Assembly: GCF_014174215.1 (NCBI RefSeq) | Contig: NZ_JABEQL010000009.1 | Location: 62,001 to 126,000, forward strand | Origin: Gluconacetobacter tumulicola | GTDB lineage: Bacteria; Pseudomonadota; Alphaproteobacteria; Acetobacterales; Acetobacteraceae | Direction of reading: 5' to 3' | Length of the DNA stretch: 64,000 nt | Shown here: positions 23,053-37,457 of the stretch, piece by piece | Position numbering within the stretch: position 1 is the stretch's first letter | Layout of the letters: the number at the start of each line of letters is the position of its first letter | The notes under the pieces: model-generated | Databases searched by the model: none | Seen by the model: only the letters and a program-made list of their open reading frames with translations | What the model was told of the DNA's origin: nothing | Made by a program: the position numbers and the translations under genes

Positions 23053-23126
23053 GGTCCGGTGGCAGAATGGTGATGCAGCGGACTGCAAATCCGCGTATGT
23101 GGGTTCGATTCCCGCCCGGACCTCCA
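23053..23126 (+). tRNA. tRNA-Cys (GCA)
   Basis: A 74-nt cloverleaf with encoded CCA. The 7-bp acceptor stem pairs 23053-23059 with 23116-23122, the anticodon stem GCGGA/TCCGC encloses CTGCAAA with anticodon GCA at 23085-23087, and the T arm has GGTTCGATTCC. Its 3' end faces the cellulose locus. Confidence 0.95.
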
Positions 23127-23397: not shown

Positions 23398-23438
23398 ATG
23401 CCACGAGGCCTTGCACTATCTGCAAGGCCTCGTGGCAT
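23398..23438 (-). terminator. Strong intrinsic terminator of the cellulose operon
   Basis: A perfect 18-bp inverted repeat, arms 23398-23415 and 23421-23438, with a 5-nt loop. On the minus strand it lies 13 bp after the stop of the last operon gene and is followed by TTCGTT. The perfect stem is much stronger than others in the window. Confidence 0.85.
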
Positions 23439-23451
23439 GGCGGGGGCTGGA

Positions 23452-24099
23452 TCAGGATTTATGAACTAATAGCGGTATGATCTGGGCTGACAGGGCGGCG
23501 CTCCATTTCTGATATTCGGCGGTTGTCAGATGGATACCGTCTTCAGTTTCAACGTGCCCGCGAGACATCAGGGTTGTCGAATCAATGTAATGACAAGGCT
23601 GAACGTCTTTTTTCAAAAGAGCAGCCAATTGAAGCGTCCGCTCGTCGGTCTTGCCGTAACGGGGGTTATACGCCCCCCAAGTCGGCCCGACCCATATGCA
23701 GTTGGTTGAACCGACCTGATCGACCAATGCATGGACCTGATCGTCAATCCAATTGGTCGGCATATCCTTCTGCCCATACCCGGCCATCGCGTCGCCAAAG
23801 ACGACGATCACCGCATTGGGATGCCATTTTTCCAGCAGGGCCGGAATATTGGGCGGCACATCCCCGGGCTGCATCGACAGGGTAATGGGCTCGACGCCAA
23901 CCCGCATGGTGGATCCACACGTGTTGGTCGGTTTTTCATCCACCCAGTCCTCCGGCTTCGAAGAACAGAGGCCATAGCTGATGACCTTGGCCCCCTGGCG
24001 CGTCAGTTCGTCCGGAAGCGTGGCCAGAAGCGTGTTTTTAAACGTCACGTGGCTATCGCCAACCAGCAGAATGGTCAAACCAAGAAGAAGCGGCGCCAA
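23452..24099 (-). CDS. SGNH/GDSL-type hydrolase, last gene of cellulose operon (BcsX-like by context)
   Basis: A 215-residue hydrolase of the SGNH fold. GDSH at residues 14-17 supplies the nucleophile Ser16, and DGIH at 187-190 supplies the Asp and His of the triad. The block III oxyanion motif, normally GxND, reads GDAM (102-105), so the Asn is missing. The start is TTG at 24099 with an AAGGA 8 bp upstream. No clear signal peptide precedes the first strand. It lies 93 bp after bcsD and before the operon terminator. Komagataeibacter bcsII operons encode an SGNH protein (BcsX) with an acyltransferase (BcsY); this one may remove or transfer acyl groups on cellulose. That role is inferred. Confidence 0.7.
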   Translation of the reverse strand: MAPLLLGLTILLVGDSHVTFKNTLLATLPDELTRQGAKVISYGLCSSKPEDWVDEKPTNTCGSTMRVGVEPITLSMQPGDVPPNIPALLEKWHPNAVIVVFGDAMAGYGQKDMPTNWIDDQVHALVDQVGSTNCIWVGPTWGAYNPRYGKTDERTLQLAALLKKDVQPCHYIDSTTLMSRGHVETEDGIHLTTAEYQKWSAALSAQIIPLLVHKS

Positions 24100-24192
24100 A
24101 GAAACTTTCCTTCACAAGGTCAATGACAGAAAGGTGGGCGCACCGATCCGTTTCCATATCTTATGGCGCAGCCGTCACCGTACTGCGAAGGA

Positions 24193-24630
24193 TTATTTTT
24201 GCGCCATTCCATATTCGAGAACAATAGTTCCGTCGCTGCAATCCTGACCGGCATCCCACGAAATCACGCAACCAGGCGTTGCATCGGGCTGTCGTCCAAT
24301 CCATGTTTCATATAGCCCGGCAAGGCACGCCAGAAGCCAGGTCCCGGCGGGCGCACCCAATCCACCAACCTTGGGCAGCCCTACATGACGGATCAGCAGC
24401 CGCCGACTGTCCCGATCCATGTGCAGCGAGGCCGTGCCCCACTGTATCAGCGCTAACGCGGCGTTCAACTCAAGTTCCAATGCCTCGATCGTCGCGCAGG
24501 GGGGAAGCAACAGCCGTTCGGCCATCCGGGTACCGACAACACGCAGGAAGCGGTCACGCGCCGCCTCCCCCACCTGCTCGTCGAAACTACCCGCAAATGT
24601 CCGAAGAAATAACACGTCAGAAAACATCAT
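24193..24630 (-). CDS. bcsD: Cellulose synthase subunit D (periplasmic BcsD)
   Basis: A 145-residue protein resembling AxCeSD, which forms periplasmic rings that guide glucan chains into crystalline ribbons. Family features visible are the MAERLLLPPCATIEALELEL region, IQWG, APAGTWLLACLAGLYETWI and a final beta-strand near TIVLEY. ATG 24630 overlaps the bcsC stop as ATGA, indicating translational coupling; a longer frame to 24684 would lie inside bcsC. BcsD marks type I cellulose operons. It lacks a signal peptide, as does the known BcsD. Confidence 0.9.
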   Translation of the reverse strand: MMFSDVLFLRTFAGSFDEQVGEAARDRFLRVVGTRMAERLLLPPCATIEALELELNAALALIQWGTASLHMDRDSRRLLIRHVGLPKVGGLGAPAGTWLLACLAGLYETWIGRQPDATPGCVISWDAGQDCSDGTIVLEYGMAQK

Positions 24631-27600
24631 GGCGTCCCAAGCAGAGAGTAATGAAGCGAAAGGCCGGCGGTCGTCTCGTTCCACGGCCCCGCCTTCTGAT
24701 ACTGAAAATCGCCGGAAACGCGCAGCGCCGACGTCACCTGATAAGACAGGTGACCGCTCGCACCGCCGACCAAACCGGAATCGGATGCGCCCCCTGCTAC
24801 GGCCGCAGTCGGATCAGCAATATCCAACTGCTCCTGCAACTCAGGTCTGGTCGGATAGAACAACGAGGAACGCGAACTATAGGACTGATAACCGATCGAA
24901 CCATTAACATTCCACAGCCAATTTCCGGAGTGGCCCGAATAGCGCACCGGCACCAGCAGCGCGAAATAAGACTGTGGAGAGAAATATCCACCATTGCCGA
25001 GACTGAACAGATACTGGTTGTTGTTATATTTAAACCAGGTCAGGTCCACGCCCAGCCGAACCTCGTTTGTCGTATCCTTGAAAACCGAAACGCTGCCACC
25101 GGCGCCAGATTCATATTCCTCATTGTCCTGGACGTTATGCCCCTGGATATAGGCGAAGCCTCCACGAACATAGAAATTGAGCAGCGGATCCCCGTATTCC
25201 AATTGCCCGTTCAAACGATTGCGGACCACCCCTCCCCAATTGCTGCCCGTCAAACCATCATGCAGGCCGGCATAGGCCAGCACGCTATCGGTCACTGCCC
25301 GCCGGTCGGCGGCAACCCGAATACGCAGCTGGTTAGTGATCTGCGGGCTGACCTCCACCCCGGCCAGTACATTCGTCTCACGGAAACCCAGGGGAGACGA
25401 TCCAACGTCCACCTTCAGCCATTTCCATGCATAGGCCAGATTTGTTCCCACGCCGACAGCGTGGAAGCGGTTGGCCACGGCGCCATATTCCTTCGTTAGC
25501 GCCGCAGTCCCGATTTCACGCAGCCCCTCCACGTAATCCATGCTGCCAACACCCGATGCCAGAACGGTCGGCGTCACATTCAGCGACATCCGCCCTGTGC
25601 CAAGCGCAAAGGAGCCTGTGATCGGCAGATCACCCTCGGTCAACTGGTTCAGGCCCGTGCCGGAACGTCCCCGAAAGATCGGTCCAGCATCAACGAAGGG
25701 AGCGAATTCCTGCGTTGTGCTCGCGATATCGCTATCAATGTTACGCAGGATTGGATCCTGCGTTCCGACTCCGCCATCTGTCTTGGCCTGTGCCGTGTTG
25801 CGGAAGGGATTGATCCGGGCACTCTCGCCGTCGATCAACACGCCGCCATCGCGTCCGCCTCCCGCCCGCTCCTGATTGCCGATTTGCTGCATTCTCAGAT
25901 CACGGGCTCTGGCAAGGTCGCTGAGGCTGGCAGTCCAGTTACCGCCCGCACGATGAAGCGTCGCTGAAGCCAGCCAGGTACGCGGATCGGCGGGCGCCTC
26001 CTCCGTCATGAAGCGAAGCTGCTCTTCAGCCAATGCGAAGTCATCGTTCTGCAACGCCAGCCGCACCACTGCCAGCCGGGCATCCAGATCGTTAGGATAT
26101 CGCGTGATGACCGCACGGGCGATCGACAGCGCCTTACGCGTCTGGTTCGCCGACTGATAGAGGCGCGCCAACGCCAGCCGCGCCGCCGGATCAGGCTGGT
26201 CGGTCGTCAGGGCCGGTGCCAACGCGTCATACGCATCGGCACGGCGCCCTTCGGCATTCAGGCGATCGGCCGTCATGATCGCAAGCCCTGCCTGGATATT
26301 CCGCAGCGCAACGCTGTCATCCGAGGTCAGGCTGGAACCTTCTATCCTTTCAAGGAGATAGCGCGCGCGCTCCGGTTCCTGCATGCGCATGAACAAACCA
26401 GCATAGGCAATCCGCTGGCGGACTGTCAGCGAACCTGCGTTCATGAAAGTCTGCAAGACAGCGCTCGCTCCTTTTGGATCGTCGCGATCCAGCAGAGCAG
26501 TGGCGATCATCCGGCCTCGCTCGCCATCAGGATCATTGCCGCGGCGCGCGATCTGCATGAAATACAATCGGGCCTCTTCCGCATCCGGTGGCGCGTCCTG
26601 GACCAGTTGCAGTTCCTCAACCCTGTCCGCGATGCGCCGAATATCGGGCGTACGGCTCCCGCGCGGCAGCCGCTGCAGCAATTGTCGCGCGGCAGAAAAG
26701 TCATTCGCCTGGTTGGCAAAATAGATCCCGGCCTGCAATTCCGCCACGGACGCCGCTCTACCTAGCGACAAGAGCGGAGCCATCACCTCTCGCGCTTCGG
26801 TCCGCTGGTCGGCCTGCAGAAGAGCCTGCGCCAAGCGGAGGCGCAGCCAGGGATCATTCCCCCGGTCCTCCAGCCCCTGCCGCAACAGGGAAATACGGTC
26901 GTCAAGCGTCGTCGCCCGTTCCGCCTGCGCGATCAGCTCGTTCCCCGCCATCTGCTGTTCGAATGCCGGTGACAGACGCCGTATCCGGGCGATCAGCATA
27001 TCGGCTTCCTGCGTGCGGCCGGATTCGCGCAGGATCTGGTATAAACCTTCCAGCGCCACCACGTTGTCAGGCTCGGTGCGTATCGCCTGACGATATGACG
27101 CTTCAGCCTCTGCCGTCCGGCCGCGCCGCCGTGCGATTTCGCCTCGCAGCGCCACCAGCATGGTTTGTGATGGATCGACTTGCAGGGCGGCGTCGACTGC
27201 CCGGCCTGCGGCATCATACTGCCCCTGCTCCATCAGGCGGCGCACCTGCTCGTATGAGCCGGAAACCTTTGTGGCATTCAGCGCGCTTTGCCACCTTGCC
27301 GCCGAAGAGGGATCGGCTTGCATTGCCTTTTCCAGCAGATCCCGGGCTTGCGCCATCTGCCCCTGGCGCATACGCACCAATCCCAGTCCGCCCAAAGCAT
27401 CAGCATCGTTCGGCGCCTGGGCTAGAGCATTGCTGAAATGCTTGTCGGCGTCCGTGATTTCACTGGTGGACAGGTCCTGATAGGCTTGAGTGCGCTCCAG
27501 CACCGCATGTTCGGATTCGGCAGCCGATGCCCGCTGCCGCAGACGGCTGATTTCATTATCGCTGGGATTCACCTTCAGCCAAGCATCGAAATAAGGGGTG

Positions 27601-28400
27601 CTTTCCGGCACCTCGGGCAGCCAATGCAACGCCTCCCGCCAGTCTCGCCGCACGGCCGCGAGATCATCCGCGGAGAGACTGGATATCGATGCCAGCTTCG
27701 TTAAGCGCGTCAGCCCGTCCTGACGGGTGGCGGGGAGCCATGTCAAAGCCTGCGCATAGGCGAGTTGGGCAGCCATATCGTTCGGGTTGGCCGCAACCAG
27801 CGCACGAAGCCCCTCGCGCCCCCGATCACGATACCCCACGGCTCCAGCGAGGGTCTGATAATATTCCACGGCATATTGCGGAGGCGGCCCGTTAGGAAAC
27901 AGGCGCCGGTAGCCAGCCGCAGCCGCAGCCGTTCGTCCTGCCTGTGCCAGGGCACGGATCGCGGGTAATTCACCCTGCGACGTATCTTGCAAATGGAGCG
28001 CCTGATCGAGCCGTATGGTTTCCGGCGCGTCCGGAGCCAATGTCCGAAGGGAAGCCGCGACGCGTAGCGCCCCGCCAAGATCCCCCTGCCGTAGAGCCCA
28101 CTGGCCGGTCAACGCCAGAACGCGAGGATCATTGGGGGCGATTTGCTTGACCTGGCTCAGCGCATCCTGCGCGTTGCCGTAACGCCCCTGATCATACCAA
28201 TATTGCGCCCGCTGGATCAGCAACGGCACCAACGACCCGGCGGAAGCGCCTGCAGCGGCCGAGCTTGCGGCCGGCGGCGGCGGGAGCTCGCCCCCTTGCC
28301 CCGCATTCTGAGCCTGGGCGTGAACCGGCACGGACACAACCGTCCCGCCGCCTATCAGCAGCAGCCCCAGGCGAACAGTTAGACGACCGCTAACCGTCAT
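24627..28400 (-). CDS. bcsC: Cellulose synthase outer-membrane protein BcsC
   Basis: Exports cellulose across the outer membrane. The 1257-residue protein has a signal peptide (hydrophobic 10-24, VHAQAQN near 26-32), a long periplasmic superhelix of tetratricopeptide repeats to about residue 850, and a C-terminal beta-barrel of about 330 residues (GGYFSPQSYFALLVPVRYSG). The TPR part shows repeats such as ALGGLGLVRMRQGQMAQARD and ALRGEIARRRGRTAEAEASY. Start and stop overlap bcsAB and bcsD by ATGA. A GGGAAG ribosome binding site lies within the end of bcsAB. Confidence 0.95.
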   Translation of the reverse strand: MTVSGRLTVRLGLLLIGGGTVVSVPVHAQAQNAGQGGELPPPPAASSAAAGASAGSLVPLLIQRAQYWYDQGRYGNAQDALSQVKQIAPNDPRVLALTGQWALRQGDLGGALRVAASLRTLAPDAPETIRLDQALHLQDTSQGELPAIRALAQAGRTAAAAAGYRRLFPNGPPPQYAVEYYQTLAGAVGYRDRGREGLRALVAANPNDMAAQLAYAQALTWLPATRQDGLTRLTKLASISSLSADDLAAVRRDWREALHWLPEVPESTPYFDAWLKVNPSDNEISRLRQRASAAESEHAVLERTQAYQDLSTSEITDADKHFSNALAQAPNDADALGGLGLVRMRQGQMAQARDLLEKAMQADPSSAARWQSALNATKVSGSYEQVRRLMEQGQYDAAGRAVDAALQVDPSQTMLVALRGEIARRRGRTAEAEASYRQAIRTEPDNVVALEGLYQILRESGRTQEADMLIARIRRLSPAFEQQMAGNELIAQAERATTLDDRISLLRQGLEDRGNDPWLRLRLAQALLQADQRTEAREVMAPLLSLGRAASVAELQAGIYFANQANDFSAARQLLQRLPRGSRTPDIRRIADRVEELQLVQDAPPDAEEARLYFMQIARRGNDPDGERGRMIATALLDRDDPKGASAVLQTFMNAGSLTVRQRIAYAGLFMRMQEPERARYLLERIEGSSLTSDDSVALRNIQAGLAIMTADRLNAEGRRADAYDALAPALTTDQPDPAARLALARLYQSANQTRKALSIARAVITRYPNDLDARLAVVRLALQNDDFALAEEQLRFMTEEAPADPRTWLASATLHRAGGNWTASLSDLARARDLRMQQIGNQERAGGGRDGGVLIDGESARINPFRNTAQAKTDGGVGTQDPILRNIDSDIASTTQEFAPFVDAGPIFRGRSGTGLNQLTEGDLPITGSFALGTGRMSLNVTPTVLASGVGSMDYVEGLREIGTAALTKEYGAVANRFHAVGVGTNLAYAWKWLKVDVGSSPLGFRETNVLAGVEVSPQITNQLRIRVAADRRAVTDSVLAYAGLHDGLTGSNWGGVVRNRLNGQLEYGDPLLNFYVRGGFAYIQGHNVQDNEEYESGAGGSVSVFKDTTNEVRLGVDLTWFKYNNNQYLFSLGNGGYFSPQSYFALLVPVRYSGHSGNWLWNVNGSIGYQSYSSRSSLFYPTRPELQEQLDIADPTAAVAGGASDSGLVGGASGHLSYQVTSALRVSGDFQYQKAGPWNETTAGLSLHYSLLGTP

Positions 28401-31400
28401 GCATTCTTCCCGCTGCCACTTGCATCCAGATAGGCCTGCCGCCGCGCCGCGCGCAACGATAATCCCTTATGCAGTGACAGACCGACGACCAGCGAACCCG
28501 CGATAGAGAGAAGGATCACGCGCAAAGGGTGCTCGCGCAGGAACCAGTCGGACCATAGCCACCAGGGCAATGAACCGATCGTGTAGGTCTTGCCACTGCG
28601 TGAAGCGATGATCTTTTGCCCATTGACGACGGTAAGGTCACCCTGCACCCCTTTTTGCAGGGTGGTATCCCGTATCGTATGAATCAGGTCCTCCAACCCT
28701 TGCGGCGTACCACCCAGCATCATTACGACAGACCGATTGGCCGCAAAGGGCGACTGGGCGCCGATCAGCGCGCCACCTCCGCCCAATGATGCTGATCCCT
28801 CCAGCGCCGCCGTATCGGGCTGGGACGATTTGCTTTCGGGAAAAGCATAGCGAATGCCGTCCAGGAGAGAACGTTCCGCAAGGCGTAGCTGGCCGTTTTC
28901 GAGCCGATATGGTGTACCCGCCAAAATGGATGACACAATATCGCTGCCCGGCAGCGTAGCCATGACGATCAGATCGTCATCCTGCACCGCCTCCAGGCCA
29001 TTCGGTCCCACGATCGTTATCCCTTCGGTCGGATACCAGGTGAAGGAACCGAACATGCCCATCAAGTCCAGATAGGCGGTCAGGAATGCGGTCCCAGGCC
29101 GGGAAGGCAATACGATCGCTGTCTGCGATAGATCGGCCATGCGGGTAAAGGGAAAGCCACTATTCGCGAAATAGGCCAGATTGGGCATCGTCGCCAAATG
29201 ATAGGCCCGCCGGAAATCCAGAGTTGAATCCGGATCGATTCCAACGGTCAGATCTTGCGGAATCGCACTGCAGTCCCGCCGCGCCAACGGGCGTCCGTCA
29301 AAATAGAACTTCAACTGATTCTGGCCATAAACGCTCCACAGCGGCAGGTTCACCTTATCCCTATGGATCTGTGAAGCATGTGGCAGAAACCGGCTGATCC
29401 AGCTCGGCAGACGATCCGGCAAAGCCCAGGAATAGCTGCGCAGATAAACGTCGTTCAGGCTTACATCCACTCGGGACTGGGCCATGTCGATTATGCTGCC
29501 CAGCGGCGTCCGAATCTGGAAATCGGCCTCGAAGGATCTGCCGCGCCATGTATAGAGATCCGGGGAGATCCGGAAAGGTATCGCCAGCGTACCCGGAACA
29601 TAACCATGGCCCTGCAGGTTGCCAAGGTTGACCAGCTCGCCAAACCGGACCAACCGATCAGTCGGCAGGAAAGCTGGCGCGTCGTATGGTTTCCGATGGG
29701 ACAAGGTGACAGGGGCAACCGTCAGGCTCGATACATCGCCAAATGTGTTGGACATGAAGGCAAGCCCGCGCGCCGCGGTCAGCAGTTCTGCTTCATTCCT
29801 TCCGCTCACCACCAGGATTGTACCGAACGGGTCGCTCGGATTGGCAATTTCCGCCACCGTGGGGCCAACAACATTTACGGCTTTGGCTATTACGGGCGGC
29901 AGGCGGTTGAGCACACCGATCGCCACCGCATTTCCCCCCAGCGGAACCTCCTCCGAAACCGGAAAGGTGACATGATGGAAGTCCACGATCCTGCCGAACC
30001 AGGACGAAACCACGGATGCCGCTTTCAACACCGCAATGTCCTGCTGCGACGACGTATCGAGCTTTGCGGGCATGATGACAGGAACAACGGCGCGCTCGTT
30101 CATCGCCGTATCGAGAAACGGCGCAGGCAGAGCGGACAGGATGCGCCGCGCGGGCAAAGGAGCTGTCGTAATGCTGATGGTAGACTGCCCCGAAATCTCA
30201 CCCCATAGAGCAGGGCTGATTTCGTTACCGCACGTTTCCGAATACTGGCCTGCAAAGGTAAAGTTGAGCGTATTCTTGCCCATGAAAAAGGCCGGATTAA
30301 CCGCAAAAGTCAGCGGCCCGAATTCCGGATGATCGCGATTGACAGGAATCGTTCCAACATACTGATCATTTAGTCGGATCGTAATACTGCTACTCTGCGG
30401 CAGCAAGGAAGGCGACAAAGAACCGCTGAACGTGACATGAGCGTCGGTCACAAGCTGGCTGGGCGGCAGGCCGAAATCGAGGCCCTGGATCGAGGCAAAA
30501 GGCGTCATGCGCAGGGACGCGGGAGCGCCCAGTTCCTGCAGGGTCCATGTCCGCGTAGACGTGCCGGGAAGTTCCACATTTCCGACGGCAGTGGACGCTG
30601 TGGCAGTCGGTCCGGGGTTACCCATGATCAGCGGAGCCCCACCAGCCGAAGGACTTGCGGCATGCTCTCCCGCATTCGGCAAGGGCAGCGTGTCGTCTCC
30701 ACCTCCCGTCGCAGGCGCGTCCAAAGACGGAGGAGAAGCCTGAGCCCCGCTGATGCTTAAACCAAGGGCGAGCAAGCCGATCATCGTAATGTTAGTCTTA
30801 CGCGGTCTCAGGCTTACGGCGCGCCGCTCACTTCTGCCCACGGCCTGGCTGGCGCGCAGGCGCGCCGCAATCGCTTCCCTATGGCGCTGGGCGCTCGCCG
30901 GCTTGTCACGTCGAACGCTCAGGTTGCGAATGGAACTGACTGCAAGCCACAGACTACGGAGCGGACGGTCGGGGGGATAGTCGGACCAGTTAACCCATGC
31001 ATCGGCGCGTCCGAAGGCGAAGCGGATGCTCCGTGCTTCATCACGAAGCGTAGCGGGTTGCCATTCCAAGCTCATCACTCCGTCGCGCACTGTCGCAACC
31101 CGGGCTGGAATAGGCCCCTCATGTAATTCGACGTGCACTTTTAGTTCTGCACCAGTTCTAAACGACTTCACATCCGCAGGATCCAGATGCACTCGGCATC
31201 CTCCGCGCGAGAGATCAACCGTCATCCCCCTGACAAGCCGCCCGTCATCACCGCCTATCGTCACGGGGAGCACGGCATGAATGCGCGCGTTGCGGCGTAA
31301 CTGGCGCGTCTCATGCCCCACGGTGATAGCAGCAAGCACGATTATCGTACTGACTGAAATCCACAGTTCGTTCATCCACAATGCATTGAACGTTATGGTG

Positions 31401-33031
31401 TCATTATGCATCAGGACCAAGCGTAGGAGTCCCCATGCCAGACCGGCCACCAGGGCCGTACAAAGGAGGATATTCGGGTAAAGCGCCCGCCAATCCGTAT
31501 ATGCACTCTGGAGCGTTCCACCCTTCTCGGTCACATTGAACTTACCGTGCCTGGGAAACAGCAAGGTAATAATGGTCACTCGCACGAGAAAGAGCGCAAG
31601 CACCGTTTCGTAAATCTCGCTCCAGAACGAATAGCGCCAGTTCTTCTGCACGCGCGCCGACGTCCCGATCGAATGAAAAAAATGCGGGAAAGCATAGGCC
31701 AGAAACGCCTCGGGTGATGCAGCGATCAGGGTCTGGTTGAACAGCAGATAGGCGAGCGGGGAGACCAGAAAGATCAGACGCGGAATAGCGAACAGAAATC
31801 CAGCCATGGCAGAAAAATAACATAGCCGTTGAGCAATCTTCAGACCGGGTCCGAACAATGGATTATCCAGCCGCAGAATCTGCAACATTCCACGCGCCCA
31901 CCGCATGCGCTGGCCGATATGCAGAATGAGCCGTTCGGTTGCCAGACCCGCGGCAAGTGGCATGGTCAGAAATGCCGTGGACCATCCCCGGCGCTGTAGT
32001 TTCAGCGCCGTATGGCAATCCTCGGTTACCGTTTCAGTCGCGATCCCGCCAATCTGCTCCAACGCGGTGCGCCGCAGCACGGCACAGGATCCACAAAAAA
32101 AAGTTGCATTCCAAAAATCATTTCCATTCTGCAACAGACCATAAAATATGTTGCCTTCAGGCGGCACGTTCTGTCCGTTGGCGAGATTCCGCTGGAACGG
32201 ATCCGGGGAATAGAAATGATGCGGCGTCTGCATCATGGCCAGGGTCGGATCGACTATAAGCCATCCTATCGTCGCCTGCAGAAACGCCCGCACAGGTACA
32301 TGGTCGCAATCGAAGATGGCAATATATTCACCACTTGTCTGCGTCATCGCATAATTCAGGTTGCCGGCCTTGGCATGTATATTATTGGGTCGGGAAATAT
32401 AGCCCACCCCGACCTCGCGCGCGAATTCAAGAAAATTGTCACGATGTCCATCATCCAGGATGTACACGTTCAATTTGTCCGCCGGCCAATCCATTCCTAT
32501 ACAGGCCAGTACGGTAGCACGGACGATATCCAGATCCTCATTATATGTCGGAACATAGACATCGACTATGGGCCAGCATGCCAAATCGGCAGGCATCGGT
32601 ACCGGCTTGCGGTTGAGCGGCCGTATCGTCTGGAAATAACTGAGCAGCAGCATCATCAGAGCGTAAAGTTCCGCGCCGCACAGAGTCAGAACCAGAATCA
32701 TCTGGAACAGAGAACTGAATGCGAGCGTTTCCGTCAGTCTCCATGTGAGATAGCGCGCGGAGACGACGAGCGACATGACCTGCAAAAACAGCGTCGCCTC
32801 GCGGCCCGGAAAACGACTGACCAAGAAGAACAACGCAATGCCCGCCACCGCGACAATCAATTGCGCGTCGTCGGACAGCAGTGCCATGCTGGCCATTGCC
32901 AGACAAGCCCCGCCCAGCACCACGAAGCTACCAAGAATGGCGTGGCTATATCGTCCTTCTATGACAGGTTGACAGGCCCGGCCGATCGCATCCATCCGCG
33001 CGCGAGCACCCGAAAGAATGCCGCTCACCAT
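28397..33031 (-). CDS. bcsAB: Fused cellulose synthase BcsA-BcsB
   Basis: A 1544-residue fusion of the catalytic and the periplasmic subunits. The BcsA half has N-terminal membrane helices, a GT-A domain with DDG (about 193-195), DCD (241-243), TED (336-338) and QRMRW (374-378), more helices, and a PilZ domain with RQLRR (576-580) and DLSRGG (606-611) that binds cyclic di-GMP. A hydrophobic segment near 748-766, MIGLLALGLSISGAQA, leads into the BcsB half with its carbohydrate-binding and flavodoxin-like domains and a C-terminal anchor helix (PLRVILLSIAGSLVVGLSL). ATG 33031 follows GAGGAG by 9 bp; a TTG at 33040 overlaps the bcsQ stop. Fused BcsAB is typical of Komagataeibacter. Activity should depend on c-di-GMP. 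Confidence 0.96.
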   Translation of the reverse strand: MVSGILSGARARMDAIGRACQPVIEGRYSHAILGSFVVLGGACLAMASMALLSDDAQLIVAVAGIALFFLVSRFPGREATLFLQVMSLVVSARYLTWRLTETLAFSSLFQMILVLTLCGAELYALMMLLLSYFQTIRPLNRKPVPMPADLACWPIVDVYVPTYNEDLDIVRATVLACIGMDWPADKLNVYILDDGHRDNFLEFAREVGVGYISRPNNIHAKAGNLNYAMTQTSGEYIAIFDCDHVPVRAFLQATIGWLIVDPTLAMMQTPHHFYSPDPFQRNLANGQNVPPEGNIFYGLLQNGNDFWNATFFCGSCAVLRRTALEQIGGIATETVTEDCHTALKLQRRGWSTAFLTMPLAAGLATERLILHIGQRMRWARGMLQILRLDNPLFGPGLKIAQRLCYFSAMAGFLFAIPRLIFLVSPLAYLLFNQTLIAASPEAFLAYAFPHFFHSIGTSARVQKNWRYSFWSEIYETVLALFLVRVTIITLLFPRHGKFNVTEKGGTLQSAYTDWRALYPNILLCTALVAGLAWGLLRLVLMHNDTITFNALWMNELWISVSTIIVLAAITVGHETRQLRRNARIHAVLPVTIGGDDGRLVRGMTVDLSRGGCRVHLDPADVKSFRTGAELKVHVELHEGPIPARVATVRDGVMSLEWQPATLRDEARSIRFAFGRADAWVNWSDYPPDRPLRSLWLAVSSIRNLSVRRDKPASAQRHREAIAARLRASQAVGRSERRAVSLRPRKTNITMIGLLALGLSISGAQASPPSLDAPATGGGDDTLPLPNAGEHAASPSAGGAPLIMGNPGPTATASTAVGNVELPGTSTRTWTLQELGAPASLRMTPFASIQGLDFGLPPSQLVTDAHVTFSGSLSPSLLPQSSSITIRLNDQYVGTIPVNRDHPEFGPLTFAVNPAFFMGKNTLNFTFAGQYSETCGNEISPALWGEISGQSTISITTAPLPARRILSALPAPFLDTAMNERAVVPVIMPAKLDTSSQQDIAVLKAASVVSSWFGRIVDFHHVTFPVSEEVPLGGNAVAIGVLNRLPPVIAKAVNVVGPTVAEIANPSDPFGTILVVSGRNEAELLTAARGLAFMSNTFGDVSSLTVAPVTLSHRKPYDAPAFLPTDRLVRFGELVNLGNLQGHGYVPGTLAIPFRISPDLYTWRGRSFEADFQIRTPLGSIIDMAQSRVDVSLNDVYLRSYSWALPDRLPSWISRFLPHASQIHRDKVNLPLWSVYGQNQLKFYFDGRPLARRDCSAIPQDLTVGIDPDSTLDFRRAYHLATMPNLAYFANSGFPFTRMADLSQTAIVLPSRPGTAFLTAYLDLMGMFGSFTWYPTEGITIVGPNGLEAVQDDDLIVMATLPGSDIVSSILAGTPYRLENGQLRLAERSLLDGIRYAFPESKSSQPDTAALEGSASLGGGGALIGAQSPFAANRSVVMMLGGTPQGLEDLIHTIRDTTLQKGVQGDLTVVNGQKIIASRSGKTYTIGSLPWWLWSDWFLREHPLRVILLSIAGSLVVGLSLHKGLSLRAARRQAYLDASGSGKNA

Positions 33032-33036
33032 GCTTA

Positions 33037-33789
33037 TCAACTCCTCACCAGGGCGGTCAGACGATGCGAGATCAAGGTCAGATCATGATTGGCCTGCGAC
33101 CGCGGGGCATAAGCGGCCAGTGACTTCTGTGCAGCCAGCGCCTCGCCGACATGCTCATCCCGATGTACCACCCCCACCAGCCGGTTACCCATCCGTGCAC
33201 TTAGATTGCGCACGATCGTCGGCCCCAGGCGGGTCATCGGATCGAATTGGTTGATAACAAAACATTGGCGCCCACCGTGCCCCAGCCCGTACGCTCTGCC
33301 GGACTCGATGTCTGTAAATAGCGCCATCGAAGCCGCGTCCGCCGCCAGCACCGTCAACAGCAGGTCAATGCGCGGCAGAAGCGCCCGCAATGCAGCAGAA
33401 GGGCCCGGTTCCGTATCAACAATAACCAGAGCGTGAGGATCGGCTGCGATCTGGCGCAGGGGCTCAGCCAACAGCTCCGGAAAATTCTCCAGTTCCGCCG
33501 AGGCATGAAGCGAAGTCGCCATATCCATTGTGCCGTATGGCAGCACCATGACGCCCTCTGCCGTGTCCTGCAGAGCATGCTGCCACAATTGCGGCTGACG
33601 CAGCATCTGCATGAAACCCCGCCCCTCTCCCAGCGGCACACCCAAATGAAGCCGGAGCATATTCTGGGGATCCAAATCCACCGCGATGATGCGATGGGAG
33701 CGCAGACGAGCCAAATTAACCGCCAGATTGGCGGCTATCGTGCTTTTACCCACGCCGCCCTTCGGCGAAACGCAACAGATCAGGGGCAT
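33037..33789 (-). CDS. bcsQ: Cellulose biosynthesis ATPase BcsQ (MinD/ParA family)
   Basis: A 250-residue deviant-Walker ATPase. PKGGVGKST at residues 9-17 has the signature Lys10, and VDLDPQN follows at about 39-45. In enterobacteria BcsQ (YhjQ) is needed for cellulose secretion and polar localisation of the synthase complex. Its stop overlaps the TTG preceding bcsAB. The ribosome binding site is weak. The standard Komagataeibacter bcsI operon lacks bcsQ, so its presence before a BcsAB fusion is notable. Family is secure; the role is from position. Confidence 0.9.
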   Translation of the reverse strand: MPLICCVSPKGGVGKSTIAANLAVNLARLRSHRIIAVDLDPQNMLRLHLGVPLGEGRGFMQMLRQPQLWQHALQDTAEGVMVLPYGTMDMATSLHASAELENFPELLAEPLRQIAADPHALVIVDTEPGPSAALRALLPRIDLLLTVLAADAASMALFTDIESGRAYGLGHGGRQCFVINQFDPMTRLGPTIVRNLSARMGNRLVGVVHRDEHVGEALAAQKSLAAYAPRSQANHDLTLISHRLTALVRS

Positions 33790-33850
33790 CGAAAGGCGTC
33801 AGTCACAGCATGGCCGATCATGAAAAAATCTATCTGTCCCGAATTATCTG

Positions 33851-34411
33851 TCAGCGGAATATATCATGCAGGCCCGATCCTGCCTGACGGCCCGTGGCTA
33901 CGCCGCCAAGCACCCTAAACATGTCGGCCAATCGCATACGACGCGCCTCCGATGCCGACATGGGAACAGACGCTATACCCACCTGCGGGGCCGCACGAAA
34001 GGCTGCAAAATCATCACCAGATTCCTGCCGGGCGGCCGAAGGCACTTTACCTGAGTCCATCGGCGCAGCAGAGGGCGAAGGCGTCGTGAAAGCGCCGCCA
34101 AACAACGAGAATGGCGCGGAAGATGGCCGAGGCGCGGACCGTCCGGAAAGACCATCGACGGCAACACGGCTGGCCGGGGAAAAGGCCATGGGCGCGCCTT
34201 GCTCTTCCGACACAACCTTGTCAGTCACACCGGAGGCCATCGAACGGCCGGGAATCCGATCCATATTATCAAACGACCAATATGGCAGCCCCGGTGAATC
34301 GACTGCGGCCCGCAACCCGGGAATATCGACACCGTCATCCCTATGCCCCTCCCGAACCTTGGGCATGGCATCGGCAATCAGAGGGAATTCAGGCCCTGCG
34401 TCACTAGTCAT
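33851..34411 (-). CDS. Small Pro/Ser-rich cellulose operon protein (BcsP/BcsO/BcsH-like by position)
   Basis: A 186-residue protein first in the core bcs operon, 61 bp before bcsQ. It has no signal peptide or membrane segment. The middle (about residues 85-135) is low-complexity, rich in Pro, Ser and Ala with SLFGGAF. The C-terminal 30 residues look ordered and amphipathic: ARRMRLADMFRVLGG then GLHDIFR, a repeated L-x-D-(M/I)-F-R pattern. Pro-rich accessory proteins BcsP and BcsO of BcsQ-type operons, and BcsH (CcpAx) of Komagataeibacter, occupy comparable positions and have short terminal helical motifs. I cannot decide which, if any, it matches. Confidence 0.65.
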   Translation of the reverse strand: MTSDAGPEFPLIADAMPKVREGHRDDGVDIPGLRAAVDSPGLPYWSFDNMDRIPGRSMASGVTDKVVSEEQGAPMAFSPASRVAVDGLSGRSAPRPSSAPFSLFGGAFTTPSPSAAPMDSGKVPSAARQESGDDFAAFRAAPQVGIASVPMSASEARRMRLADMFRVLGGVATGRQAGSGLHDIFR

Positions 34412-34841
34412 CCCACCCTCTCCCAGCTTCGCTACAATGGGGCAAACCCGACTATCTCATGCTTATGAAATTTCGTCACGTCGCCGATCAAGACATTTCT
34501 ATACCAAGAAAATCAAATGGCGCGCACCAAAATTCATCAAAAAAGAAAGAATTAGACAATAAAGCCGAAGCAGACGCTTCACAGAAAACGCAAAAAAATT
34601 ATCCGTTTTGAATGCAACAAAAAAATTGTTCGCCAGCATGGCACGAAGATTGGCAACCGTACCCGAGAAAGCTGAATGCCCGCATGCTTCAGCCGACAGG
34701 CTGTCCGCCCGGATCACCTCGGTCTGCTACAAAATATTTCAGAACAAACAGAGGATACGCCATGTGAGAAAGGTAAACCGCGCTTGACCCTACCCTCATA
34801 ACGATCACAGATTTTGAATACCCGTCGCTGAAAATCGCTCA
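34412..34841. other. AT-rich intergenic gap upstream of the core bcs operon
   Basis: A region of visibly lower GC than its neighbours, with A/T runs on both strands around 34490-34640. It probably carries the promoter of the core bcs operon. The best pair I can see on the minus strand (TTGTCT, 17 bp, TGAATT) is weak. A 72-codon frame at 34499-34717 has no support. Confidence 0.4.
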
Positions 34842-34890
34842 GAGCCTGTTTGCAAATGCGCGCAGGCGGCGATCCGCATTTCCCGACACC
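34842..34890. repeat. Short repeat copy near the endoglucanase stop codon
   Basis: GAGCCTG at 34842-34848 is followed by AAATGCGCGCAGGCGGCGAT (34854-34873), which matches the copies at 1850 and 57695 closely. The second inverted end is not evident, so it is a degraded or truncated copy. The endoglucanase stop triplet lies a few bases further (34895-34897). Confidence 0.5.
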
Positions 34891-34894
34891 CCCT

Positions 34895-35965
34895 TCAGAA
34901 CGCGCCCTTCTGCTGAACGACACCATATGCCAAGCCGCCCAAAATCAGCGAAGATAACAGCGTCAGCGAAGCCGAATAGTAGTTCGAACTCGCAGCCAAG
35001 GCAGGGAAAGGCACATTTCCGGCACCGGGCATATCCAAAAGACCACTAGCGATTCCAACCGCATAGAAACCTAGTGGCGCATTATAGGGCGCAGTCATAC
35101 CACTACGCAGATCCACCCAGGCCGGCATTCCCCCCTCCCCCCAGGCATTCCAGTAGCGCATAAACCCGCTTCTTAAATCCGCGTCCAATAATCCGGCCCA
35201 TTGCAAATAAAGCGGCACACGCACTGCATCATAGGAGAAACGCGCCGGATGACCGCGGGCAATCGTGACGACTTCACTCGTCACCTGCATCCAATCCGGC
35301 GGCAGGTTCCAGCGCCCAAACCGCCCCTGCCGAAGCAGATCCAGCCCATCATGGATAACCCGCTGCCAGATATCATGATCATCCAGATCCGACGCAGCCA
35401 TCAACGAGGGCATGATATAATAAGAAGGGTTTATAACCACATGATTCGACGACGAAAATCCATAAAGCCCGGGCAGAAGCAGCATGCGATGCCCGACCGT
35501 GACCACGACCTGCGCCCGCAGCGCAGCATAGATCGCTCGAGCGGATTCGATCAGGTCGGAACGCCCCCAACGCCGGCCCGCCAACACCAGTGCCAGGGCG
35601 ATCAGCAGATCACCATCCGTGGCATTGTTCTGGTCCGGAACATGAGGCGAAGCATCAGGCAGATAATGCCATGCATGCAATGCATCATCCGGACGCTTCA
35701 AAGTCTGCTCAGTCCACACGAACATACGGTCGAAAGTGGCACGGTCGTCAAAGGCCTGAGCGAACAGCAGTCCATATCCCTGCCCTTCGCTGTGGGACTG
35801 CATACCATTGCCATTGTCAGTAACCCGGCCGTCCGATGCAACAAAGCGCTGACAATACAACGACCAGTCATCCGGCGTCGCTGCCCGGCCCGCACTGCCG
35901 AGAGGAAGACTCAGCCCACCGGCAATCGTCTGAAACAAGCGGCGCCGGACGAGGGAAAGGGTCAT
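34895..35965 (-). CDS. bcsZ: Endo-beta-1,4-glucanase, glycoside hydrolase family 8 (CMCax/BcsZ type)
   Basis: A secreted glucanase that trims mis-assembled cellulose and is needed for normal fibril assembly in Komagataeibacter. The signal peptide is short (LFQTIAGGLSLPLGSAGRAA). GH8 motifs are HSEGQGYG with the likely acid Glu60, and NNATDGDLLIAL with Asp117. At 356 aa it is slightly longer than CMCax; the end carries an unusual hydrophobic stretch (LTLLSSLILGGLAYGV) that could anchor it or form part of the fold. It precedes the core operon by 483 bp and so may have its own promoter. Confidence 0.92.
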   Translation of the reverse strand: MTLSLVRRRLFQTIAGGLSLPLGSAGRAATPDDWSLYCQRFVASDGRVTDNGNGMQSHSEGQGYGLLFAQAFDDRATFDRMFVWTEQTLKRPDDALHAWHYLPDASPHVPDQNNATDGDLLIALALVLAGRRWGRSDLIESARAIYAALRAQVVVTVGHRMLLLPGLYGFSSSNHVVINPSYYIMPSLMAASDLDDHDIWQRVIHDGLDLLRQGRFGRWNLPPDWMQVTSEVVTIARGHPARFSYDAVRVPLYLQWAGLLDADLRSGFMRYWNAWGEGGMPAWVDLRSGMTAPYNAPLGFYAVGIASGLLDMPGAGNVPFPALAASSNYYSASLTLLSSLILGGLAYGVVQQKGAF

Positions 35966-36145
35966 GTTTTGAGGCCATATGATCGCAGAATGACACGGTT
36001 AAGCTATATACAAACCTCGGCAGTGCCTACCCAACCCTGAAAGAGATTTTACAGTCCACGCCATAAAAGAAAATTTCCCGCGCGCCCGGGCCGCCTGCAC
36101 ACCATTCAAATAATGATAAAAAACACCGCCAGCGGCCAAACGATC

Positions 36146-37276
36146 TCACCGAATACGTGAAACCGCCGATACGATGAACAGTCCGAAAGCAATAAGCACA
36201 CTATTTCCCACCAACATTACGAGCTTACGCAGCCTCGTTTCGGGAGAGGCGCGCTTCTCATATACCAGCCCTACGCGCTCGATACAGACATAACTGAAAA
36301 AACTTGCAACCAGCGACAGGATCAGCACACCGGCCATCACCCATCCATGCACATAAAAAGCCGTTACATAATTAGCCAAAACAATAACCGGCCAATGCCA
36401 TAGATAGACGGAATAGGACATCACACCGAGCGGAGATAGAATTGGCAAGGCATGACGCGAGACCAAGGTCTGAGGCATGACGATTAACGCCGCGGTCGCC
36501 ACACAGGGCAATATCGACAGAGGAGATGGGCAAGCAAAGCTGATGGAATAGAATATCCCCGCCAGAACGATCGTCAGGCAAGCCGCGGCAGCGACCAGAT
36601 TTGCGACAAGGGAAGACAAACGCAACGGCGGCAAAAGCCAGATCATCGTTCCAAGCAGGAACTGCCACATCCGGTCGAAAATATTATAATATGCCGTTCC
36701 GCCCCCATGCAGATGCTCAGCCACGTCAAAAATGAGGGACAGAATAAAAATACCCACGATTGCCCAGCCACGATGCCTTACATATGGCAGGAAAAGCGCC
36801 ATCAGAAATATAATGGCGTAAAACTGCATCTCCAGCGACAAAGACCAGGTATGCAGGAACGGGTAAGCAATACTCTGCCCCTCAAAATACCCAACATGCC
36901 TGGCCGCAAAAATATTTGACAAATATACAAGCGCATAAGCGCCATTGAGCGCAATGTCAGCACGATCGCTAGGCAGAACCCACCACAACATTGCTGCAGA
37001 AACCACAACAATCATACCAAGCAGAGCGGGCAACAGGCGATAGACACGCCGGCAAATAAAATCGACAGGCCGAAAGGGCACCTGAAACAGGGCTGAACGC
37101 CCCATGAAATATCCAGAAATTACGATAAAAACGTCAACGCCGACAAAACCGCCGCGCAGCCATCCCGCATGAAACAGGACCACCAGCAAAACAGCCAGCC
37201 CACGTAGCCCATCGACGTCCCGTCGACGATCTACAGGAAAGAGAGCGGAAAAGACTGGCAGTATCCTGAAGTGCAC
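36146..37276 (-). CDS. Acyltransferase-3 family membrane protein (BcsY-like by context)
   Basis: A 376-residue multi-pass protein of the OafA/NodX acyltransferase-3 family. The hallmark R-x10-H pair is Arg25 and His36 in RGLAVLLVVLFHAG, followed by GGFVGVDVFIVISGYFMG. About ten hydrophobic helices are visible. Such proteins transfer acetyl or succinyl groups to extracytoplasmic polysaccharides. The start is a GTG at 37276, in a poor ribosome-binding context. Base composition is much lower in GC than the housekeeping genes, suggesting transfer. Its location ahead of the GH8 gene suggests it acylates cellulose, as proposed for BcsY, but it could serve another surface polymer. Confidence 0.78.
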   Translation of the reverse strand: MHFRILPVFSALFPVDRRRDVDGLRGLAVLLVVLFHAGWLRGGFVGVDVFIVISGYFMGRSALFQVPFRPVDFICRRVYRLLPALLGMIVVVSAAMLWWVLPSDRADIALNGAYALVYLSNIFAARHVGYFEGQSIAYPFLHTWSLSLEMQFYAIIFLMALFLPYVRHRGWAIVGIFILSLIFDVAEHLHGGGTAYYNIFDRMWQFLLGTMIWLLPPLRLSSLVANLVAAAACLTIVLAGIFYSISFACPSPLSILPCVATAALIVMPQTLVSRHALPILSPLGVMSYSVYLWHWPVIVLANYVTAFYVHGWVMAGVLILSLVASFFSYVCIERVGLVYEKRASPETRLRKLVMLVGNSVLIAFGLFIVSAVSRIR

Positions 37277-37381: not shown

Positions 37382-37457
37382 TGGCGTCCCGTACGGGATT
37401 CGAACCCGTGTTACCGCCGTGAAAGGGCGGTGTCCTAGGCCTCTAGACGAACGGGAC
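37382..37457 (-). tRNA. tRNA-Glu (TTC)
   Basis: A 76-nt tRNA with encoded CCA. The acceptor stem GTCCCGT/ACGGGAC closes at 37457 and 37386, the anticodon arm CCGCC-CTTTCAC-GGCGG gives TTC, and the T arm is GGTTCGAATCC. Its 3' end points toward the cellulose locus. Confidence 0.95.

What the first reader, a model, noticed from the sequence alone, without database searches (positions are those of the whole stretch)
23452..37276. Mosaic cellulose locus combining BcsD, GH8, BcsQ, a BcsAB fusion and an acyltransferase/SGNH pair
The genes present are seen directly: acyltransferase-3, GH8, small Pro/Ser-rich protein, bcsQ, bcsAB fusion, bcsC, bcsD, SGNH hydrolase. Known Komagataeibacter operons split these: bcsI has GH8, CcpAx and BcsD but no BcsQ, while bcsII has BcsX/BcsY (SGNH/acyltransferase) but no BcsD. 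BcsQ belongs mainly to enterobacterial and betaproteobacterial types. A single cluster with all of these may secrete a crystalline but acylated cellulose, or be an ancestral form from which the two operon types split.
Basis: partly seen in the sequence, partly recalled or inferred. Interest (0 to 1): 0.72.

Follow-up and report, generated by a model that had tools for sequence, protein, structure and literature searches.

The report
Cellulose operon with captured acyltransferase gene
A vinegar-bacterium relative carries a standard cellulose-making gene cluster of its family, with one unusual extra gene, an acyltransferase usually seen in a second kind of cellulose cluster, all sitting in what looks like a swappable slot between two tRNA genes.

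Summary
All eight genes are present, intact and on one strand (23452-37276, minus). The core (GH8, small adaptor-like protein, BcsQ, BcsAB, BcsC, BcsD) is not a mosaic. It is a common Acetobacteraceae Type I order: 40 of 56 evaluable BcsD loci carry BcsQ. The SGNH gene behind BcsD also recurs, in G. johannae, G. tumulisoli, G299 and four Acetobacter genomes.

The unusual part is the acyltransferase in front of GH8: a BcsY, which elsewhere sits in a separate bcsII operon. The draft assemblies of the window genome and of one near-identical relative show no bcsII, yet keep BcsY, under purifying selection, beside bcsI. BcsY and SGNH come from different gene lineages, so they are not one inherited pair, and the locus is not the ancestor of bcsI and bcsII.

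In close relative G174, 97% identical flanks stop at the two flanking tRNA genes and Wzx/Wzy-type polysaccharide genes fill the slot. With its low GC3, the locus looks like an exchanged polysaccharide cassette.

Likely function: crystalline-type cellulose secretion with acyl tuning of fibres. Acylation is inferred; none was seen by FTIR in a bcsY-bearing Komagataeibacter (PMC10106347). New variant of a known kind.

The parts
36146..37276 (-). AT3 acyltransferase, BcsY ortholog displaced from bcsII (376 aa, GTG start); carries R-X10-H (residue 25) and RxxR (residue 77)
   Evidence: PF01757; 77% identical to BcsY of the G174 bcsII operon; tree 100/100; motifs, and 143 of 153 residues invariant in 16 other BcsY-type rows kept
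34895..35965 (-). GH8 endoglucanase (CMCax/BcsZ type), 356 aa
   Evidence: PF01270; tree with Gluconacetobacter bcsI GH8
33851..34411 (-). probable BcsH/CcpAx-BcsP-type adaptor, 186 aa: BcsR-like N-terminal motif (DIPGLRAAVDSPGLPYWSF) and C-terminal LADMFRVLGG...LHDIFR motif
   Evidence: profile-profile, Gluconacetobacter/Acetobacter set against Asaia/Kozakia (probability 96.5%, E 8e-10), Roseomonas-type (85%, 6e-6), Komagataeibacter-type CcpAx (27%, 7e-4), burkholderial BcsP (0.7%, 0.08); with control families 0.13 or worse. Single-profile searches not significant for the window protein
33037..33789 (-). BcsQ, MinD/ParA-like ATPase, 250 aa
   Evidence: TIGR03371 over its cut-off; tree
28397..33040 (-). 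BcsAB fusion, 1547 aa (GT2, PilZ, BcsB)
   Evidence: TIGR03030, PF07238, PF03170; the only PF03170 match in the genome
24627..28400 (-). BcsC, 1257 aa (TPR plus outer-membrane barrel)
   Evidence: PF05420 and TPR families; no BcsC tree was built
24193..24627 (-). BcsD, 144 aa from ATG 24627
   Evidence: PF03500; start read
23452..24099 (-). SGNH-type protein of the bcsI-terminal clade, 215 aa, TTG start, no signal peptide evident by eye, four invariant Cys
23398..23438 (-). hairpin behind SGNH (18-bp perfect stem), likely terminator
   Evidence: same stem read in G277
37382..37457 (-). tRNA-Glu(TTC), one edge of the exchange slot
23053..23126 (+). tRNA-Cys(GCA), other edge of the exchange slot

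Best explanation
This is a family-typical Type I (BcsD) cellulose secretion operon that carries a stand-alone BcsY acyltransferase of bcsII origin and its own terminal SGNH protein. BcsAB makes the glucan under c-di-GMP control and BcsC exports it. BcsQ, the BcsH/P-like adaptor and BcsD form the cytoplasmic scaffold that lines up synthases, and GH8 trims. BcsY would pass acyl groups from acyl-CoA across the inner membrane, and an SGNH enzyme, probably the operon's own, would place or remove them on nascent chains, loosening fibre packing. The whole locus arrived as a low-GC cassette in a slot between tRNA-Glu and tRNA-Cys where other genomes of the genus hold other gene clusters. Shown: gene content, order, phylogeny, slot break points, purifying selection. 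Inferred: acyl transfer, BcsY-SGNH partnership, co-transcription, export of SGNH, the adaptor's role, arrival from outside.
For: Gene identities. GH8-BcsQ-BcsAB-BcsC-BcsD is widespread in the family. BcsY tree: window and G277 sister to BcsY of G174/G302/G301, 100/100; SGNH in a bcsI-terminal clade of six rows, 99/99. One BcsB each in the G000 and G277 assemblies, so no second synthase for BcsY to serve; one AT3 and one SGNH match in each. BcsY dN 0.18, dS 1.6 against G174, similar to BcsAB against G042 (0.20, 1.5), and 143 of 153 invariant residues kept. G174 flanks 97% identical up to W23130 and from W37373, with sugar transferase, WecG, export and flippase-type genes in the slot, and Wzy- and Wzz-like matches just under Pfam's cut-offs. 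A K. hansenii bcsY deletion thinned fibres from 160 to 67 nm and raised Young's modulus from 145 to 235 MPa (PMC10106347, passages). WecH, an AT3-only protein, worked with the soluble SGNH protein PatB (PMC9558356, passages).
Against: No acetyl groups were seen by FTIR in K. hansenii cellulose, and deleting the bcsII synthase there had similar fibre effects (78 nm, 284 MPa), so the bcsY phenotype need not be acylation of bcsI cellulose (PMC10106347, passages). The SGNH protein shows no clear signal peptide by eye; for the related BcsX, predictors disagree (PMC9318390, passages). Four Cys invariant in 30 of 30 rows hint at an oxidising compartment. BcsY and SGNH did not descend as a pair. About 480 bp separate GH8 from the adaptor gene, so AT3-GH8 may be a transcript of its own. 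dS is near saturation in the dN/dS estimate.
Confidence: 0.58

Rival explanations
1. The AT3 is a leftover of a lost bcsII operon. In a tandem bcsII-bcsI locus deletions removed the bcsII synthase and left BcsY in front of GH8, now with no cellulose role or acting on another glycan.
For: Tandem loci exist: SGNH-AT3-BcsC-orf-GH8-...-BcsD in L062, and AT3-BcsC-orf-GH8-...-BcsD in L065; bcsI followed by bcsII-type genes in Acetobacter G365, G430 and G412. The G000 and G277 assemblies show no bcsII.
Against: The gene is intact, keeps its AT3 motifs and 143 of 153 invariant residues, with dN/dS near 0.11 against G174 and near 0.1 (few changes) against G277. It is the only match to this AT3 in the genome.
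Confidence: 0.25
2. The locus is an ancestral all-in-one operon from which bcsI and bcsII split.
For: It holds genes of both types in one cluster.
Against: The bcsII BcsAB rows form their own clade (100) and the window core is inside the Gluconacetobacter bcsI group. BcsY is nested in Gluconacetobacter BcsY. The exact order is found in two near-identical genomes only among 80 loci. Low GC3 and tRNA break points mark recent arrival.
Confidence: 0.03
3. The AT3 modifies something else (lipid A, another exopolysaccharide) and is only physically beside the bcs genes.
For: 180 bp gap to GH8 and no transcript data; AT3 proteins act on many glycans (PMC9558356, passages).
Against: Its orthologs sit inside bcsII operons in the six other Gluconacetobacter genomes that have it (L139-L144) and beside bcsII genes in the Komagataeibacter-type and Acetobacter loci read (L285, L286, L295, L296, L299). 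Other ortholog loci were not read in full.
Confidence: 0.12

Closest known systems
Komagataeibacter bcsI (cmcAx-ccpAx-bcsA/B-bcsC-bcsD-bglAx)
   Same: GH8, a small adaptor-like protein, synthase, BcsC and BcsD in the same order; also next to tRNA-Glu and rluD in L057
   Different: The window locus has BcsQ and fused BcsAB, adds AT3 in front and SGNH behind, and no beta-glucosidase-sized ORF lies between SGNH and tRNA-Cys
bcsII (bcsAB-bcsX-bcsY-bcsC-bcsZ)
   Same: The AT3 is a BcsY ortholog; the SGNH is a distant paralog of the bcsII SGNH (54-57% identity within the genus)
   Different: The bcsII operons read have no BcsD, BcsQ, adaptor or GH8, and X and Y are neighbours inside the operon
Gluconacetobacter johannae/tumulisoli and Acetobacter orientalis bcsI with terminal SGNH
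   Same: BcsQ-BcsAB-BcsC-BcsD-SGNH, same SGNH clade
   Different: No AT3 in front. Both Gluconacetobacter species and G299 carry a separate bcsII (L142-L144), as does A. orientalis (L299). GH8 lies behind SGNH in A. orientalis
Tandem bcsI-bcsII loci (Acetobacter G365, G430, G412; L062, L065)
   Same: BcsD-type and bcsII-type genes in one cluster
   Different: bcsII synthase ORFs are present in the Acetobacter tandems; L062/L065 show one synthase in the stretch read and lack BcsQ; gene order differs
Pseudomonas wss cellulose acetylation system
   Same: Proposed acyl transfer to cellulose
   Different: wss uses the MBOAT protein WssH with alginate-type partners (PMC9558356, PMC7112194, passages), not an AT3 protein

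Membership tests
Type I (BcsD-positive) Bcs system | BcsD encoded with the synthase | tested here: met
   PF03500 126 bits, directly behind BcsC; definition from PMC11470070 passages
Type I (BcsD-positive) Bcs system | Pro-rich BcsH/BcsP-type adaptor | tested here: inconclusive
   strong profile match to the Asaia/Kozakia and Roseomonas-type proteins of the same position, weak to CcpAx (27% probability, E 7e-4), none to burkholderial BcsP; single-profile tests not significant; 10% Pro
Komagataeibacter-type bcsI | GH8, small gene, bcsAB, bcsC, bcsD in this order | tested here: met
Komagataeibacter-type bcsI | no BcsQ in the operon | tested here: not met
   BcsQ present; absent in 9 of 9 evaluable g60/g73 loci
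Komagataeibacter-type bcsI | bglAx behind bcsD | tested here: not met
   SGNH, tRNA-Cys and pcm follow
bcsII (acylated-cellulose) operon | bcsAB-bcsX-bcsY-bcsC without BcsD | tested here: not met
   only BcsY is of bcsII lineage
AT3 acyltransferase (PF01757) | R/K-X10-H and RxxR motifs | tested here: met
   residues 25 and 77; motifs named in PMC9558356
SGNH hydrolase superfamily | Ser block I, Gly block II, Asn block III, His block V | tested here: inconclusive
   Ser16 invariant in the 29 of 30 rows that reach it, Asp187 and His190 in 30 of 30; where block III is expected I read GD, not GxN; no Pfam hit; fold hits to 1yzf (E 2e-5) and PatB (E 5e-4), TM-scores up to 0.59, from a model of mean pLDDT 61
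Cellulose acyl transfer system | acyl groups on the product | not testable with these tools
   needs polymer analysis

The most novel reading that the evidence does not exclude
A crystalline-cellulose machine (BcsD, adaptor, BcsQ) has captured the acyl-export enzyme of the amorphous-cellulose machine, replacing two separate synthases by one that secretes acyl-tuned crystalline cellulose. The genus swaps such surface-polysaccharide programmes as whole cassettes between two tRNA genes.
Probability: 0.3. Interest if true: 0.6.

Novelty: new variant of a known kind. Interest (0 to 1): 0.36.

Why it matters
BcsY has no proven product; where it was studied (K. hansenii) it comes with a second synthase and its own polymer, which blurs mutant phenotypes. 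A strain with one synthase, one BcsY and one SGNH protein would make the question testable with single gene removals. The family survey also suggests that Komagataeibacter bcsI is a BcsQ-less form of a common Acetobacteraceae operon, and hints that CcpAx belongs with the adaptor-like proteins encoded at the same position.

Tried and rejected
Ancestral all-in-one operon: rejected by trees and composition. BcsQ as a recent import: rejected. Plasmid origin: six plasmid records match AT3, at 34% identity or less and at most 80% coverage. For BcsQ 28 records match, the best Kozakia baliensis at 49%, the other listed ones 39-40% (8 not listed). att-like direct repeats spanning the bcs locus: none convincing (20 of 56 families shown). 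Promoter and terminator scan: counts near those of shuffles. Rfam: the two tRNAs, plus a sub-threshold hit on the terminal hairpin. Sequence search of solved structures: one chance antibody hit (E 0.1) for SGNH, none for AT3. Single-profile tests of the adaptor motifs: a profile from other families' N-termini gave the window protein E 43, and a CcpAx C-terminal profile E 1.4, neither significant; only profile-profile comparison worked, on sets that I picked by hand from proteins chosen by residue composition. The N-terminal pattern found in 81 of 133 selected proteins (0.035 expected in shuffles) was written after looking at these proteins. The BcsR residues D21, L25, F29, L31, Y36 of PMC11470070 (passages) are the independent yardstick: the window has D, L, V, S, Y at these spacings. 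Quick trees have SH-aLRT support only; no BcsC tree was built. Acetobacter orientalis is the window's nearest neighbour, with weak support, in the BcsD and SGNH trees (82; 90/72), so an Acetobacter-like donor for part of the locus is not excluded. Dropped rows: the weak second BcsD hit of G015; 14 loci with short upstream sequence and 10 without BcsAB on the fragment; 9 of 142 small-protein candidates.

Result against my reading in print: PMC13028821 (passages) reports bcsQ on the same contig as bcsA in 17 of 18 Komagataeibacter genomes, by best hit; I find none inside bcsI in 9 of 9 evaluable g60/g73 loci. The names Komagataeibacter and Novacetimonas for g60/g73 are inferred from gene content, not given by a call.
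Full report
Observation. The eight genes are present, complete and collinear on the minus strand between tRNA-Glu (37382-37457) and tRNA-Cys (23053-23126). From 5' to 3': AT3, GH8, small protein, BcsQ, BcsAB, BcsC, BcsD, SGNH. A perfect 18-bp hairpin follows SGNH. The window genome (a 90-contig draft) holds one BcsB, one match to this AT3 and one to this SGNH.

Organism. The genus is Gluconacetobacter. Contigs of relatives G123 and G303 have the same lengths as named records of G. johannae LMG 21312 (91815) and G. tumulisoli LMG 27802 (422465). The species was not identified. In the same way g31 is Acetobacter (G413 contig 60, 136857 bases, as in A. orientalis 21F-2).

The core is ordinary for the family. 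BcsD occurs in 79 of 299 Acetobacteraceae genomes sampled. I fetched 79 loci and compared them with the window. Of 56 loci with more than 2.5 kb upstream of BcsAB (window included), 40 carry BcsQ and 16 do not; nine of those 16 are g60/g73, the Komagataeibacter-type genera by gene content. Of 515 named BcsQ relatives the best 80 were kept. Most are Roseomonas, Roseococcus, Siccirubricoccus, Asaia and other Acetobacteraceae, many with the order GH8-BcsQ-BcsAB-BcsC-BcsD; the query was an acetobacterial alignment. Trees of BcsAB, GH8 and BcsD put the window with Gluconacetobacter bcsI loci (and A. orientalis in or beside them), apart from the Komagataeibacter-type bcsI. The BcsQ tree, which holds no Komagataeibacter-type row, does the same with weaker support (89). 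In the BcsAB tree the four bcsII rows are a clade of their own. The Asaia paper PMC8156966 (passages) already names BcsQ, BcsB, BcsC and BcsD in operon drawings.

The small protein. Sets of proteins from the same position were compared profile to profile. The Gluconacetobacter/Acetobacter-type set matches Asaia/Kozakia (96.5% probability, E 8e-10), Roseomonas-type (85%, 6e-6, N-terminal) and, weakly, Komagataeibacter-type CcpAx (27%, 7e-4, C-terminal). Asaia/Kozakia matches CcpAx at 61%, 8e-5. There is no match to burkholderial BcsP (E 0.08), nor between Roseomonas-type and Asaia/Kozakia (0.07). The five sets against three control families gave 0.13 or worse; two controls against each other gave 0.011. 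The window N-terminus, DIPGLRAAVDSPGLPY, has D, L, V and Y at the spacings of the BcsR residues D21, L25, F29 and Y36 in PMC11470070 (passages); the place of L31 is Ser. I read it as the BcsH/BcsP-type adaptor that ties BcsD to the synthase; this is likely, not proven. Single-profile searches did not reach significance for the window protein.

The SGNH gene. It belongs to a clade (99/99) with the SGNH genes behind BcsD in G277, G. johannae, G. tumulisoli, G299 and A. orientalis, distinct from the SGNH of bcsII. In Acetobacter, 4 of 49 genomes have a match of 65-69% (G413, G430, G365, G412), and these four sit directly behind BcsD. Across the family sample, 21 of 299 genomes in 8 genera have some relative at E 1e-10 or better. 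All 30 aligned sequences keep four Cys, Asp187 and His190, and Ser16 is kept in the 29 that reach it. In the window, L033, L145, L146 and L139 the reading frame has no earlier start codon. By eye the first residues look like the first strand of the fold and not like a signal peptide; no predictor was run. For the related BcsX, SignalP and Phobius disagree (PMC9318390, passages). A low-confidence model (mean pLDDT 61) matches the SGNH hydrolase 1yzf and the periplasmic O-acetyltransferase PatB.

The acyltransferase is the odd part. Its orthologs (E 1e-60 or better) occur in 26 of 397 family genomes, in 4 of 102 genera. In the six other Gluconacetobacter genomes that have it, beside the window genome and G277 (8 of 14 searched), it sits in a bcsII operon, BcsAB-SGNH-AT3-BcsC-orf (L139-L144). 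The window gene and its 99% identical copy in G277 are sister to BcsY of G174, G302 and G301 (100/100). G000 and G277 show a single BcsB each, so no bcsII in these draft assemblies. Among the 80 BcsD loci (some of them fragments), AT3 relatives appear in four: the window, L032, and L062 and L065, where bcsII genes stand in front of GH8, as PMC9318390 (passages) describes for K. saccharivorans. Acetobacter G365, G430 and G412 have bcsI followed directly by bcsII-type genes; AT3 was read in G365 only, because the stretches fetched for G430 and G412 end at the second SGNH gene. Tandem joining of the two operons followed by deletion is therefore a plausible route to the window order. AT3 keeps 143 of 153 residues invariant in 16 other BcsY-type rows, and dN/dS is about 0.11 against G174, with dS near saturation.

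The slot. Against G174 (pcm 99%, rluD 98% identical) the DNA is 97% identical up to W23130 and from W37373, that is, to the two tRNA genes, with no blastn match between. G174 has sugar transferase, WecG, export, GH44 and flippase-type genes there, and Wzy- and Wzz-like genes whose matches lie just under Pfam's cut-offs. Next to the same tRNA-Cys, G301 and G302 carry sugar transferase and WecG genes. G300 has an integrase gene beside tRNA-Glu, a MobA gene and a Wzy-type gene. G042 has pilus/secretion genes and a glycosyltransferase in the slot. GC3 of the eight bcs-locus genes is 0.55-0.67, and of seven flanking genes 0.75-0.86. The distant genus member G305 and the Komagataeibacter-type L057 have their bcsI beside the same tRNA-Glu/rluD side, so the site seems old even though the present occupant looks recently exchanged. 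The donor is unknown.

Mechanism. Cellulose synthesis and scaffolded export follow from the families. Acyl transfer is inferred: AT3 proteins carry acyl groups across the membrane, and an AT3-only protein can work with a soluble SGNH protein (PMC9558356, passages). In K. hansenii, bcsY deletion thinned fibres and raised stiffness, but deletion of the bcsII synthase did much the same and FTIR saw no acetyl groups (PMC10106347, passages). Whether SGNH reaches the periplasm is open.

Literature. Searches with bcsD/bcsQ/bcsX/bcsY (9 papers), bcsQ/bcsD/Acetobacteraceae/acyltransferase/bcsH (13 papers), BcsD/BcsH/BcsQ/scaffold, Gluconacetobacter/bcsQ and Acetobacter orientalis/bcsII (15 of 71 listed) showed no paper whose title or abstract start describes this arrangement. 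Only passages of seven papers were read. The library lacks most subscription papers, including the main operon review.

Verdict. A real and intact locus, ordinary in its core, with a captured BcsY and an exchangeable genomic slot as the points of interest.

Noticed in passing
L032:15980-16310 (G277): Beside tRNA-Cys about 250 extra bases lie between two copies of a ~14-bp tRNA-Cys 3'-end repeat, with a short frame resembling the start of a tyrosine integrase (likeness recalled, not confirmed by a scan); the window lacks this stretch.
   Followed up: partly
L267, L268, L269, L148, L151: The tRNA-Glu/tRNA-Cys interval of related Gluconacetobacter genomes holds polysaccharide, pilus/secretion or mobilisation genes, as if it were a cassette-switching site.
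   Followed up: partly
L271:15215-15499 (G305): BcsQ of this Gluconacetobacter relative is a 94-aa ORF only, apparently truncated; an IS1595-type transposase lies behind BcsD.
   Followed up: no
   Followed up: no
L301:5674-10350 (G412): BcsAB is split into four overlapping ORFs; frameshifts or assembly errors.
   Followed up: no
L299 and L295 (Acetobacter): The bcsII synthase appears as separate ORFs of about 870 and 700 aa at the two ends of the operon, by size BcsB-like and BcsA-like.
   Followed up: no
L034:15086-16300 (G042): A tyrosine integrase gene lies directly behind BcsD of this relative's bcsI operon, which is not at the tRNA-Cys site.
   Followed up: no
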